DNA of 64,000 nt, taken from positions 1 to 64,000 of the forward strand of contig BGOK01000006.1 of NCBI GenBank assembly GCA_003569205.1. Reading direction: 5' to 3'. Source of the DNA: Verrucomicrobiota bacterium (GTDB taxonomy: Bacteria; Verrucomicrobiota; Verrucomicrobiia; Opitutales; UBA953). Below the pieces are notes generated by a model. It was not told where the DNA came from. It saw nothing but the letters and a program-made list of their open reading frames with translations, and ran no database searches. Made by a program: the position numbers and the translations under genes. Shown piece by piece: positions 6,239-37,154 of this stretch. How positions within the stretch are numbered: position 1 is the first letter of the stretch; each line of letters opens with the position of its first letter.

Positions 6239-6290
6239 GGCTCCATTAGGCAAGGAAGAGGCCGGAGGGCAAGAGAGAGGCGGAGGAAGC

Positions 6291-6342
6291 AGTGCAAAGG
6301 TGCAAAGGCGGCAGAGCCGCGTGTAAAAGTGTAAAGGTGGGA
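6291..6342 (+). repeat. Hairpin-cored GTGCAAA repeat, copy 1
   Basis: Layout: two GTGCAAAG octamers, then the hairpin GCGGC-AGA-GCCGC (6308-6320), then GTGTAAAAGTGTAAAGGTG. It shares this layout (conserved 8-base-period flanks, variable hairpin) with the copies at 6519, 35829 and 36373. Copy 1 is inverted relative to copy 2, about 200 bases away. Confidence 0.7.
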
Positions 6343-6351
6343 TGCAAGTTT

Positions 6352-6373
6352 GGGGTCGGGGTAGGGGTCGGGG
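6352..6373 (+). other. Canonical G-quadruplex motif
   Basis: Four tracts of four Gs separated by two-base loops (TC, TA, TC) at 6352-6355, 6358-6361, 6364-6367 and 6370-6373. This meets the strict four-tract definition and could fold on the plus strand, upstream of both divergent genes (M20 peptidase and tyrS). Function is unproven. Confidence 0.7.
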
Positions 6374-6380
6374 TCGGAAA

Positions 6381-6516
6381 ACATGTCCGAATTTCAGGTC
6401 TCGGGTCTCGGCAGCCGGGTCCCAGGTTCAAGTCTTCAGGTTCGGGTACAGGTTCAGGATTTGAATTTTGCCCCGCACCAGAGACCTGAGGGCCGAGACC
6501 TGAGACCCGAAAATGT
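6381..6516. repeat. Internal imperfect inverted repeat
   Basis: Left arm 6381-6413 (ACATGTCCGAATTTCAGG..., with GGTCTCGGGTCTCGGC) and right arm 6491-6516, whose reverse complement begins ACATTTTCGGGTCTCAGG and ends GGTCTCGGCC. The arms match closely apart from a few substitutions and enclose about 75 bases. The repeat is nested inside the pair of hairpin-cored repeats at 6291 and 6519, so the region could extrude as a large cruciform or RNA stem. Confidence 0.6.
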
Positions 6517-6518
6517 CT

Positions 6519-6571
6519 TCACTTTTGCACCTTTGCACAGGCCGAAGGCCGATTTGCACTTTTGCACAACC
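6519..6571 (-). repeat. Hairpin-cored GTGCAAA repeat, copy 2 (inverted)
   Basis: Read on the minus strand: GTGCAAAAGTGCAAA, a hairpin GGCC-TTC-GGCC (plus-strand positions 6540-6550), then GTGCAAAGGTGCAAAAGTG. Same architecture as copy 1, in the opposite orientation. Confidence 0.7.
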
Positions 6572-6573
6572 TG

Positions 6574-6595
6574 CCCCTGCCCCTGTCCCTGCCCC
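6574..6595 (-). other. G-quadruplex motif on the minus strand
   Basis: C-tracts at 6574-6577, 6580-6583, 6587-6589 and 6592-6595 give GGGG-CA-GGG-ACA-GGGG-CA-GGGG on the minus strand. It lies about 60 bases before the tyrS start and could act in its 5' leader as a C-rich run. It is also a simple CCTGCC-type repeat, so it may be slippage-prone. Confidence 0.5.
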
Positions 6596-6655
6596 TCAAA
6601 AGAGCTTCCGCTCTTTTGTCTTCCCCCTCCCCTCCCCCTTGGGAAGAGTGATGGC

Positions 6656-34698: not shown

Positions 34699-35823
34699 TT
34701 ACTTAAGGACGGACTTCACGCCCGCGATGACGCGGTCGCGGTCTTCGACGGACATTCCTGAGCCCGAAGGCAGACAGAGTCCTTGGGCGAAGAGGCCTTC
34801 GGCGACTTGACCGCCAAAGTATTCAGCCCCCGCGAAGACAGGCTGTAGGTGCAAGGGCTTCCATATCGGCCGGGCTTCGATATCGAGTTTCTCTAAGGCA
34901 AGCCTCACGTCATCCGTGGTGGCTCCCGCTTTGGTCGGGTCAATCGTCAGACAGGATAACCAGTGCGTAGACTCTCCCCAGGATGCCTCGGGCTGCATGA
35001 CAATACCTGGGCAAGGGGCGAAGGCCTTTTGGTAGGCGCGGTAGTGATCGCGGCGACGGGTGACCTTGCCGGCTAAGCGGAGCAACTGGCCACGGCCAAT
35101 CGCCGCGCAAATATTACTGAGGCGATAGTTATAACCGATCGTTGAGTGCTGGTAGTGAGCAGCGGGCTCGCGCGCTTGGGTGGCTAGGAAACGAGCCTGC
35201 TGCGCGAGCTCCGCATTATCGGTGACGAGCATACCGCCCCCCGAGGTAGTAATGATTTTATTGCCGTTGAAGGAATGAATTCCAAAGAGCCCGTGGGAGC
35301 CGGGGCTGGTTTCGCCGTAACTGGCGCCCAGCGCTTCGGCGGCGTCTTCAATCAACTTCACGCCGTAGCGCTCACAACAGGCCTTAATGGGCGCAATGTC
35401 AGCGGACTGACCATAGAGGTGGACTAAGACCAGGGCTTTAGGCGTCCGGCCAGCCTTGGCCTTACGCTCAATGACCTCACAGGCCACCGCCGGATCCATA
35501 TTCCAACTCAGGGCTTCTGAATCGATAAACACCGGCTTGGCGCCCAGATAGGTAATCGGCGCGGCCGAAGCGATGAAGGTGAGCGTCGAGCACAGGACTT
35601 CGTCGCCCGGACCCACCCCAGCAAGCCGCAGCGCTAAGTGTAAAGCGGCGGTACCCGAGGAGACGCCAACGGCGTGGCGCGAACCAACGATCTCGGCAAA
35701 CTCGCGCTCAAACGCATCCAGCTGCGGGCCGATGGGAGCGACCCAGTTGGATTCGAACGCTTCGAGTACGAACTCAACCTCGGCACTGCCGACGTCAGGA
35801 GGGGAAAGGTAAAGGCGAGGCAT
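34699..35823 (-). CDS. DegT/DnrJ/EryC1-type sugar aminotransferase (PglE-like)
   Basis: PLP enzyme transferring an amino group to a keto-sugar nucleotide. 374 aa; LYLSPPDVGSAE start, SSGTAALHLALRLAGV, LIEDAAEALGASY and the PLP lysine in IHSFNGNKIITTSGGGML. GYNYRLSNICAAIGRGQL is also conserved. With the NeuD/PglD-like acyltransferase just upstream in the operon and the PglC-like transferase on the other strand, a UDP-4-amino-4,6-dideoxyhexose is likely. The required 4,6-dehydratase (PglF type) is not in this window. The start codon directly abuts a hairpin repeat (35829-35887) that now forms the 5' leader. Confidence 0.92.
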   Translation of the reverse strand: MPRLYLSPPDVGSAEVEFVLEAFESNWVAPIGPQLDAFEREFAEIVGSRHAVGVSSGTAALHLALRLAGVGPGDEVLCSTLTFIASAAPITYLGAKPVFIDSEALSWNMDPAVACEVIERKAKAGRTPKALVLVHLYGQSADIAPIKACCERYGVKLIEDAAEALGASYGETSPGSHGLFGIHSFNGNKIITTSGGGMLVTDNAELAQQARFLATQAREPAAHYQHSTIGYNYRLSNICAAIGRGQLLRLAGKVTRRRDHYRAYQKAFAPCPGIVMQPEASWGESTHWLSCLTIDPTKAGATTDDVRLALEKLDIEARPIWKPLHLQPVFAGAEYFGGQVAEGLFAQGLCLPSGSGMSVEDRDRVIAGVKSVLK

Positions 35824-35828
35824 AGCGT

Positions 35829-35887
35829 TTTAAAAGTGTAAAAGTGCAAATCGGAGCGGGGCTCCGGTGCAAAGGTGGAAAAGTGAT
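35829..35887 (+). repeat. Hairpin-cored GTGCAAA repeat, copy 3 (left end of the S23 unit)
   Basis: AAAAGTGTAAAAGTGCAAAT, then a 6-base stem CGGAGC-GGG-GCTCCG (35852-35866), then GTGCAAAGGTGGAAAAGTG. Same layout as the copies at 6291 and 6519; inverted relative to the copy at 36373. Confidence 0.7.
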
Positions 35888-35968
35888 ACAAAACCGCCTA
35901 GACCGCGCTGAGGAATCAACGTGACGAAGGATAGTTGGTGGGCGACAGACATTCTGTTTGTTCCTTCT

Positions 35969-36364
35969 ATGGCTACATTCACTAGATTTGAAGAAATTGA
36001 AGCGTGGAAGACCGCGGAGTTCATGGTCGTTAAAGTCTATGCTCTTCTGGCAGACGGCCCAGGGGCCAGAGACTGGGCACTGAAAGACCAACTGCAGCGA
36101 GCGTCTGTATCTATTATGTGTAATATCGCCGAAGGCTTTGAGAGCCGATCGGACCGCACATTTTACGACATGCTCCGCCGTGCTAAAGGCTCGTGCGGTG
36201 AAGTCAGGACCTTAGTCCATATCGCCGGAAAGATTGGGTATATCTCCGAGGAAAAGGTCACTGCGATGATGCCAATCTGCCTAAAGTGCTCGGGCCAGCT
36301 TCAAGCCCTGATGTCACACTTGGAAACCACACGGCCAGAAGTTCGTAGCCGTAAATTGTGGTGA
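35969..36364 (+). CDS. Four-helix-bundle protein (S23 / 23S rRNA intervening-sequence protein family)
   Basis: About 131 aa, all-helical protein of the bIVP/S23 (also Avd-like) family. Hallmarks are FTRFEEIEAWKTAEFMVVKV, DQLQRASVSIMCNIAEGFES and FYDMLRRAKGSCGEVRTLV. Family members are encoded within intervening sequences of 23S rRNA genes in some bacteria or scattered in genomes; an Avd relative supports diversity-generating retroelements. The biochemical role of free-standing copies is unknown. I chose the ATG at 35969 because it gives the family N-terminus (MATFTRFEEIEAW); an upstream GTG at 35921 is possible. It is the only plus-strand gene between 28.7 and 62 kb, which fits insertion. Confidence 0.85.
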   Translation: MATFTRFEEIEAWKTAEFMVVKVYALLADGPGARDWALKDQLQRASVSIMCNIAEGFESRSDRTFYDMLRRAKGSCGEVRTLVHIAGKIGYISEEKVTAMMPICLKCSGQLQALMSHLETTRPEVRSRKLW

Positions 36365-36372
36365 TCGCACCT

Positions 36373-36428
36373 GTCTTCACTTTTTCACTTTTGCACAAGC
36401 CTTAGGCGGGTTGCACTTTTGCACCCTC
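36373..36428 (-). repeat. Hairpin-cored GTGCAAA repeat, copy 4 (right end of the S23 unit)
   Basis: On the minus strand: GTGCAAAAGTGCAACCC, a GCCTAAGGC core (plus-strand 36399-36407), then GTGCAAAAGTGAAAAAGTG. It ends exactly at the epsI stop codon (36429-36431). Confidence 0.65.
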
Positions 36429-37154
36429 TCATTTCCACTCCCGATCCGAAAATACTCCCAGGCCTTGCAAGGCCTGCAGGAACTCTCGGTTAATGGGGTC
36501 GGCAAGGATTTGATCCACGGGAAGGTTGGAGGAGAGACGGATGAACATCTGCTCGCTCTTCTGATTGAGGCCATAGGTGCGGATATCCTTCCAAAGCAAA
36601 GGTAAGCGTTCGAGGCGTCCGACGAGTCCGTCGCGCCAACCCGCCGATTGCTCTTCGTATCGGTTAGGTTGGCCGTTCACGAGATGCCAGAAAGCCACGT
36701 TCTGCCGGCCGCCTGAGGGAACGAGATACTGGCCATACTCATAAGGCAATAAGGGGCGACCGCCGACCTGAGCCGTGACCGCATATTTACGCTCGGTGCG
36801 AATACAGCCGTTGTTAACCCAACAGGAATCAGGATTATGTGAACCTGCATCGACGACGGAGACCTTACCGGGCTCCCAGTAAGCGGCGTAGACCAAGATC
36901 GAGGTTTCGCCCCGAACATAAAGCGCTTGGGCTGACTGACTGAAATTTAAGATCCCCTGGACGTTCATGTTCCCGGCTTTGCTGTCGGCAACGGGGATAT
37001 CACGGCGCGTCCAGCCGGCGATATTCCGCGGCAAGGCGTCCACGACTTGGCCCGTAAAACGGCGATCCCGGTGTGAGAAATATTCCGCCGCGACCACGAG
37101 GCCAAGTAGGAGGACGAGGCAGGTGGCCCCGACATAGAGGAGGGCTTTGCGCAT
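36429..37154 (-). CDS. Exosortase-associated EpsI family protein
   Basis: 241 aa with an N-terminal membrane anchor (LLYVGATCLVLLLGLVVAAEY) and a periplasmic EpsI domain. Family marks: VYAAYWEPGKVSVVDAGSHN followed by PDSCWVNNGC (the HxPxxC-like segment) and a downstream FWHLVNGQPNRYEE. EpsI domains normally occur fused to or beside an exosortase in exopolysaccharide loci linked to PEP-CTERM-type proteins; no exosortase is in this window. The start is one base after the NeuD stop, so it belongs to the operon. Function is not established biochemically. Confidence 0.8.
   Translation of the reverse strand: MRKALLYVGATCLVLLLGLVVAAEYFSHRDRRFTGQVVDALPRNIAGWTRRDIPVADSKAGNMNVQGILNFSQSAQALYVRGETSILVYAAYWEPGKVSVVDAGSHNPDSCWVNNGCIRTERKYAVTAQVGGRPLLPYEYGQYLVPSGGRQNVAFWHLVNGQPNRYEEQSAGWRDGLVGRLERLPLLWKDIRTYGLNQKSEQMFIRLSSNLPVDQILADPINREFLQALQGLGVFSDREWK

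What the first reader, a model, noticed from the sequence alone, without database searches (positions are those of the whole stretch)
35829..36428. S23-type gene bracketed by inverted hairpin repeats, inserted in the polysaccharide operon
The sequence shows a 600-base unit: two copies of the same hairpin-cored repeat in opposite orientation at the ends and one plus-strand four-helix-bundle gene inside. It breaks a minus-strand operon whose other junctions are only 1-7 bases or overlaps, and its edges touch the epsI stop and the degT start. S23/IVP proteins are known from intervening sequences bounded by inverted repeats in 23S rRNA, so a related mobile or RNA-processing element outside rRNA is possible. 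No transposase is seen, so mobility would need a helper.
Basis: partly seen in the sequence, partly recalled or inferred. Interest (0 to 1): 0.8.

Follow-up and report, generated by a model that had tools for sequence, protein, structure and literature searches.

The report
Mobile S23 gene between heptamer arrays
A tiny gene of the S23 four-helix-bundle family sits here between two inward-pointing arrays of 7-8-letter repeats, and the same arrangement turns up across many bacterial phyla, inserting cleanly between genes without any recognisable transposase, so it looks like an overlooked kind of very small mobile element.

Summary
The 600-bp unit holds an S23 (TIGR02436/PF05635) gene between inverted short-repeat arrays (GTGCAAAR), each interrupted by a different small hairpin. 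In 55 genomes of the genus I found about 130 S23 genes: 74 of 99 testable ones have strongly inverted flanks, against 0 of 65 control genes, and each S23 clade has its own array. In 78 S23 loci spread over many phyla the same holds (65% against 3%); arrays have period 7-8 with an RGTY core read inward from both ends. Arrays are also dispersed without S23, as inverted pairs that always point inward (18/18), and are commoner where the cognate S23 exists. The degT-epsI site is empty (4-24 bp) in seven relatives and holds a second S23 clade with other arrays in eight. Closed Nostoc plasmids show clean filled and empty sites, with apparent 4-5 bp target duplications. S23 is under purifying selection (dN/dS 0.04-0.09). 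No reverse transcriptase is found in 54 of 55 genomes. Best reading: a REPIN-RAYT-like gene-plus-repeat mobile system whose partner is S23, related to rRNA intervening sequences. Insertion is shown by comparison; S23's mobilising role is inferred; RNA processing is untested.

The parts
35832..35886 (+). left array: AAAAGTG/GTGCAAA units interrupted by hairpin CGGAGCgggGCTCCG (35852-35866); reads inward on the plus strand
   Evidence: inner and outer parts pair with the right array
35969..36364 (+). S23 / four-helix-bundle gene (131 aa from ATG; a longer GTG start at 35921 is unlikely)
   Evidence: TIGR02436 and PF05635; orthologues 63-98% identical in the genus; predicted fold pLDDT 94, matches 2GSC at Z 18.8
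36376..36424 (-). right array, inverted relative to the left one, with a different hairpin core (AAGCCTTAGGCGGGTT, 36397-36412)
34699..35823 (-). degT-family aminotransferase of the polysaccharide operon: left border of the insertion site
   Evidence: PF01041; junction comparison
36429..37154 (-). epsI / DUF3485 gene: right border of the insertion site
   Evidence: PF11984; 36 of 55 genomes of the genus hold a homologue
6292..6600 (.). S23-less pair of the same array family (plus-strand array from 6292, minus-strand arrays 6524-6567) with further inverted array families nested inside and outside
   Evidence: the same spacer is about 100 bp and array-free in six relatives

Best explanation
The unit is one copy of a widespread class of very small insertion elements made of an S23 gene between two inward-reading arrays of 7-8-nt repeats, which act as its ends. 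Each S23 lineage recognises its own array. S23 is the trans-acting partner that lets S23-bearing copies and S23-less array pairs spread into gaps between genes, in the way a RAYT partners its REPINs but with an unrelated protein. Shown: the architecture, its linkage to S23, clade-specific arrays, presence/absence at several sites, S23-less inverted pairs, purifying selection on S23. Inferred: that S23 binds the arrays as an oligomer (relatives form pentamers, and a conserved polar face Q41-R44-S48-N52-E55 plus S75-E78 could read the RGTY core), and that this binding drives copying or insertion. Whether the active form is DNA ends or an RNA stem, and which nuclease or polymerase helps, is unknown.
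For: Inverted flanks: 74/99 S23 genes in the genus against 0/65 control genes (Fisher p = 3e-25); 51/78 across many phyla against 5/157. Sense-strand upstream arm is G-rich in 97/98. Period 7-8 with strand-asymmetric AAGT/AGTC/AGTT/GGGT in both arms. Each S23 clade has its own array; S23 genes in one genome almost never share one (1 of 104 pairs). S23 similarity predicts array similarity across phyla after GC control (partial Mantel r = 0.34, p = 0.0005). Dispersed copies are commoner with the cognate S23: GTGCAAA median 36 against 6, p = 1.4e-4; GAGTAT 10-38 against median 0.5, p = 4e-4. S23-less pairs point inward 18/18. Filled and empty sites: degT-epsI, NAD-kinase/ABC spacer, Nostoc plasmids with TTCTA, TAATG/TTATG and TTAG duplications, CTTA at eps. 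dN/dS 0.04-0.09 in five clades. No RT in 54/55 genomes.
Against: No experiment shows movement or binding. Orthologous S23 genes over 80% identical mostly sit at the same site (61/82 and 115/130 pairs), so much of the clade-array match is plain vertical inheritance. No recent multi-copy S23 families inside one genome were seen. Arrays persist in some genomes without the cognate S23 (91 copies in G023), though MAGs break at repeats. S23 has no known catalytic activity. Target duplications rest on four sites, were read by eye, and one further Nostoc site is not a clean insertion. Y1-positive genomes also have more arrays (p = 0.001).
Confidence: 0.55

Rival explanations
1. RNA-level element: the arms pair in transcripts to form a stem that RNase III cuts, as in 23S rRNA intervening sequences, and S23 binds the repeat-bearing 5' arm (TRAP-like, one subunit per heptamer) to control its own mRNA or the host operon. 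Movement is rare and incidental.
For: The unit folds into a two-part terminal stem, z -3.5. Coxiella IVS has a 28-bp terminal stem cut by RNase III (PMC4990558). A 7-8-nt period suits single-strand reading better than the DNA helical repeat (inference). Relatives are pentamers (2GSC, five chains; PMC10053308).
Against: Both arms keep the same inward-reading core, which an RNA reader of the 5' arm alone would not need. Arms of one locus are only slightly better matched to each other than to arms of its orthologue (median 57 against 53, p = 0.018), so compensatory stem selection looks weak. S23-less pairs are dispersed and polymorphic.
Confidence: 0.25
2. S23 is a passenger: the array pairs are MITE- or REPIN-like elements moved by an unrelated transposase encoded elsewhere (for example a Y1/RAYT), and S23 genes were captured between two arrays.
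For: Y1_Tnp matches occur in 28/55 genomes, and Y1-positive genomes carry more arrays (p = 0.001, not corrected for genome size). Most array pairs lack S23.
Against: Genomes rich in arrays without a Y1 match exist (G012 55 copies, G010 40, G047 36, G019 23 at 99% completeness). The best RAYT examined is bordered by other palindromes, GGTCAGACTACTACATCGTAGTCTGACC. Independent capture of the same gene by dozens of unrelated arrays in many phyla, with matching clade-specific arrays, is unlikely. S23 is under purifying selection.
Confidence: 0.13
3. S23 genes merely insert into, or accumulate in, intergenic repeat landscapes that are there for other reasons.
For: Intergenic spacers in these genomes are mosaics of several array families.
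Against: Control genes, including 20 with open spacers on both sides, hardly ever show such flanks. Arms match each other, not the arms of other S23 loci in the same genome. In Nostoc plasmids the inserted segment is only arms plus S23.
Confidence: 0.05

Closest known systems
23S rRNA intervening sequences (IVS) with S23p/IVP, e.g. Coxiella burnetii (PMC4990558)
   Same: Same protein family; a small element of one S23 ORF whose termini are inverted repeats that pair in RNA; mobility long suspected.
   Different: Lies between protein genes, not inside rRNA; ends are arrays of 7-8-nt repeats, clade-specific and dispersed through the genome; RNase III excision untested here.
REPIN-RAYT systems (PMC3116915)
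   Same: A gene that is single and distinctive within each genome, bordered by its own repeat type; the repeat is dispersed, largely as inverted pairs; several gene-repeat pairs per genome.
   Different: Partner is an S23 four-helix bundle with no Y1 HUH nuclease; repeats are short tandem arrays with an RGTY core, not 16-mer palindromes; S23-bearing units themselves occupy variable sites.
Avd accessory protein of diversity-generating retroelements (4DWL, 8UB7)
   Same: Same fold (VIA Z 13.4-13.6) and, by CDD as cited in PMC10053308, the same superfamily; Avd acts with nucleic acid.
   Different: No reverse transcriptase is present (1 of 55 genomes); about 9-11% identity; no TR/VR.
Intergenic heptamer arrays: TAACTGA repeats (PMC4679880) and cyanobacterial STRRs (the latter from my own knowledge)
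   Same: Tandem 7-nt units in intergenic space, in Cyanobacteria and Bacteroidetes among others.
   Different: Reported as direct repeats without a partner gene; 'S23' does not occur in PMC4679880. Here such arrays are tied to S23 genes.

Membership tests
S23 / 23S_rRNA_IVP protein family | sequence match to PF05635 / TIGR02436 above the curated cut-off | tested here: met
   90 bits against 33.8 and 84 against 24
S23 / 23S_rRNA_IVP protein family | four-helix bundle like 2GSC/2RLD | tested here: met
   AF2 pLDDT 94; VIA Z 18.8 to 2GSC, 15.9 to 2RLD
rRNA intervening sequence (IVS) | located inside a 23S rRNA gene | tested here: not met
   between degT and epsI; no Rfam match in 35500-36800
rRNA intervening sequence (IVS) | terminal inverted repeats forming a stem | tested here: met
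rRNA intervening sequence (IVS) | excision from the transcript by RNase III | not testable with these tools
   needs RNA experiments
REPIN-RAYT | partner gene is a Y1 (HUH) tyrosine transposase | tested here: not met
   the partner is S23; Y1 genes in the genus lie elsewhere, and the one read clearly has other palindromes
REPIN-RAYT | gene single-copy, each with its own dispersed, mostly inverted-paired repeat | tested here: met
MITE of a known transposon | terminal repeats shared with an autonomous transposase-bearing element | tested here: inconclusive
   own-genome hits to the unit were all to the end repeats, but the neighbourhoods of all copies were not annotated
Diversity-generating retroelement | reverse transcriptase in the genome | tested here: not met
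   PF00078 in 1 of 55 genomes, none in G000

The most novel reading that the evidence does not exclude
S23 proteins are themselves the mobility proteins of a bacteria-wide, transposase-free class of autonomous elements of about 400-600 bp: they recognise RGTY heptamer arrays at the ends and drive insertion, and they generate the short tandem repeats scattered through many bacterial genomes. rRNA intervening sequences would be members that landed in rRNA.
Probability: 0.33. Interest if true: 0.96.

Novelty: new variant of a known kind. Interest (0 to 1): 0.86.

Why it matters
S23/IVP genes are annotated in a vast range of bacteria as 'four helix bundle protein' or 'S23 ribosomal protein' with no function, and the origin of intergenic heptamer arrays (STRRs, TAACTGA repeats) is an open question for which PMC4679880 states that no mechanism is evident. 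Tying the two together gives both a testable explanation, offers a source for rRNA intervening sequences, and points to a gene-plus-repeat mobile system whose partner protein has no known nuclease fold. The fold shared with Avd suggests a common theme of nucleic-acid handling.

Tried and rejected
Simple chance: rejected by control genes, mismatched flank pairs and reversed-pattern controls. IS-like multi-copy transposon: no recent S23 paralogues within genomes. RT in trans: RVT_1 in only 1/55 genomes. RAYT as partner: Y1 does not track arrays strictly and has other palindromes. Strong concerted evolution of the two arms: only weak. S23 inside rRNA among the 80 broad loci: no convincing 23S marks at the S23 sites. 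TAACTGA arrays next to S23: exact TCAGTTATCAGTTA found only in two viral-contig loci, no plasmid match (where the low-complexity filter may hide it); not settled. S23 in annotated phages: none. Literature: nine searches of the open PMC library found no description of S23 genes bordered by such arrays; subscription papers could not be read.

Full report
What is there. The window's unit at 35829-36428 is a plus-strand S23 gene (35969-36364) between two arrays of GTGCAAAR-type units that read inward from both ends. It sits between the minus-strand genes degT and epsI. The protein is a clear S23/IVP family member (TIGR02436, PF05635). Its predicted structure is confident and matches the S23 structures 2GSC and 2RLD, then the DGR protein Avd. 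Each array is split by a small hairpin; the two hairpins differ in sequence. Folded as RNA, the ends close in a two-part stem.

The linkage is general within the genus. A family search found about 130 S23 genes in 43 of 55 genomes. For 99 with usable flanks I compared the upstream flank with the reverse complement of the downstream flank: 74 score at least 40, against 0 of 65 control genes in the same loci and 4% of mismatched S23 flank pairs; direct repeats are rare. A tree of 113 S23 domains shows that each clade carries its own array, for example GAGTATSG, GGACACGTGG, TTGACAAG, GCGGTTRG, GAGTCGGGGAA. The upstream arm is G-rich on the sense strand in 97 of 98. Caution: pairs over 80% identical mostly share the genomic site, so that part is vertical inheritance. 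Two S23 genes of one genome share an array in only 1 of 104 pairs.

It is general across Bacteria. A scan of one genome per species gave 80 S23 loci from Cyanobacteria, Bacteroidota, Patescibacteria, Acidobacteria, Chloroflexota, Nitrospirota, Planctomycetes and others. Of 78 testable, 65% have inverted flanks scoring at least 30, against 3% of 157 control genes (Fisher 8e-26). The arrays have period 7-8 and a strand-asymmetric RGTY core in both arms. S23 similarity predicts array similarity after correcting for GC. Eight cyanobacterial plasmid S23 genes were read in annotated records; six have strong inverted arrays, for example GGGAGTA units around an S23 gene between nrdB and nrdA.

Arrays also live without S23. 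GTGCAAARGTGCAAA occurs 54 times in this genome and 0-91 times in relatives, with no hits for the reversed control pattern. Counts are higher with the cognate S23 (median 36 against 6); a second family behaves likewise. Nearby arrays of opposite orientation always point inward (18 of 18, of which three enclose S23). Such pairs enclose about 100-350 bp, often with other array pairs nested inside.

Evidence for insertion. At degT-epsI, seven relatives have only 4-24 bp between the genes; nine of the junctions read in full hold the GTGCAAA-clade S23, and eight hold a different S23 clade with different arrays. The array-free allele of G064 has the length expected of the filled alleles of G017, G057 and G043 minus the element and minus one copy of CTTA. 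A second S23 of this genome, between an ABC protein gene and an NAD-kinase-like gene, is present only in G000 and one close relative; others have S23-less array pairs of their own families, or a bare spacer (the two neighbour names are my reading of the sequence, not a family search). A spacer near window 6.3 kb is bare in six relatives and filled with various array pairs elsewhere. Closed Nostoc plasmids give named cases: the same operon is empty in pNsp_c, pNsp_b, pC052_B and p057_H (GGTTCTAGGTTATG) and filled in pNsp_a, pC052_D and pNPM1, where TTCTA borders both ends of arms plus S23. In pNsp_c another S23 unit sits one gene further on, at an overlapping TAATG stop/start that appears duplicated as TAATG...TTATG; pNe_5 has S23 between nrdB and nrdA where Calothrix NIES-4105 is bare. 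A site after a TraM-like gene is also variable but not a clean insertion. The target duplications were read by eye at four sites and need a systematic test.

Is S23 a passenger? dN/dS is 0.04-0.09 in five clades, so the protein is maintained. Reverse transcriptase is absent from 54 of 55 genomes. Y1 transposases are present in about half and their presence does correlate with array number (p = 0.001, uncorrected for size), but several array-rich genomes have none, and the best RAYT examined is bordered by unrelated palindromes. S23 number correlates with array number after genome size is taken into account (partial rho 0.52); these counts do not correct for phylogeny or for incomplete assemblies.

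Mechanism. Shown: a unit of arms plus S23 that is present or absent between genes; S23-less derivatives; clade-specific arrays. Inferred: S23 recognises the array. Invariant Q41, S48, N52, E55 and nearly invariant R44 lie on one face of helix 2, and S75, E78 on helix 3 (and helix limits). Whether recognition is of DNA ends, which the symmetry of the two arms favours, or of an RNA stem, which the IVS parallel favours, is open. So is the enzyme that cuts and joins.

Comparison with known systems. It works like REPIN-RAYT (PMC3116915), where each single-copy gene has its own dispersed, mostly inverted-paired repeat, but it is not one: the partner is not a Y1 protein. It shares protein and end structure with rRNA IVSs (PMC4990558), but it is not in rRNA. 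Intergenic heptamer arrays are described without a partner gene (PMC4679880). I found no description of this combination in the open library. I therefore call it a new variant of a known kind; if S23 alone proves to be the mobility protein, it would be categorically new.

Noticed in passing
window 6260-6640: Spacer between two divergent genes filled with at least three nested families of inward-pointing short-repeat arrays; bare in six relatives.
   Followed up: partly
L365 (Anabaena sp. 90 pANA02) 1468-1836 and L363 (Pseudanabaena galeata pPg_01) 1492-1851: S23 gene sitting between cas6 and cas4 in cyanobacterial CRISPR operons on two different plasmids; worth asking whether it is a recurrent insertion or a functional link.
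   Followed up: no
L357 around 601-1546: A RAYT-like Y1 gene in a relative (G014) bordered by GGTCAGACTACTACATCGTAGTCTGACC palindromes, a separate REP-type family in the same genus.
   Followed up: partly
L020, L021: In other families of the order, relatives of this S23 also appear to sit in nucleotide-sugar/polysaccharide loci; possible preference for, or tolerance in, surface-polysaccharide operons.
   Followed up: no
G050:C12:3568-3885, G040:C1:52415-52732: S23 homologues with an in-frame TGA: decaying copies.
   Followed up: no
L268, L269 (viral contigs): S23 loci on viral contigs that carry TCAGTTATCAGTTA, the complement of the published TAACTGA heptamer array.
   Followed up: no
L151, L158, L164: Many intergenic regions also carry GGTAGGG...CCCTACC hairpin repeats nested inside the arrays; a further dispersed palindrome family, not analysed.
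   Followed up: no
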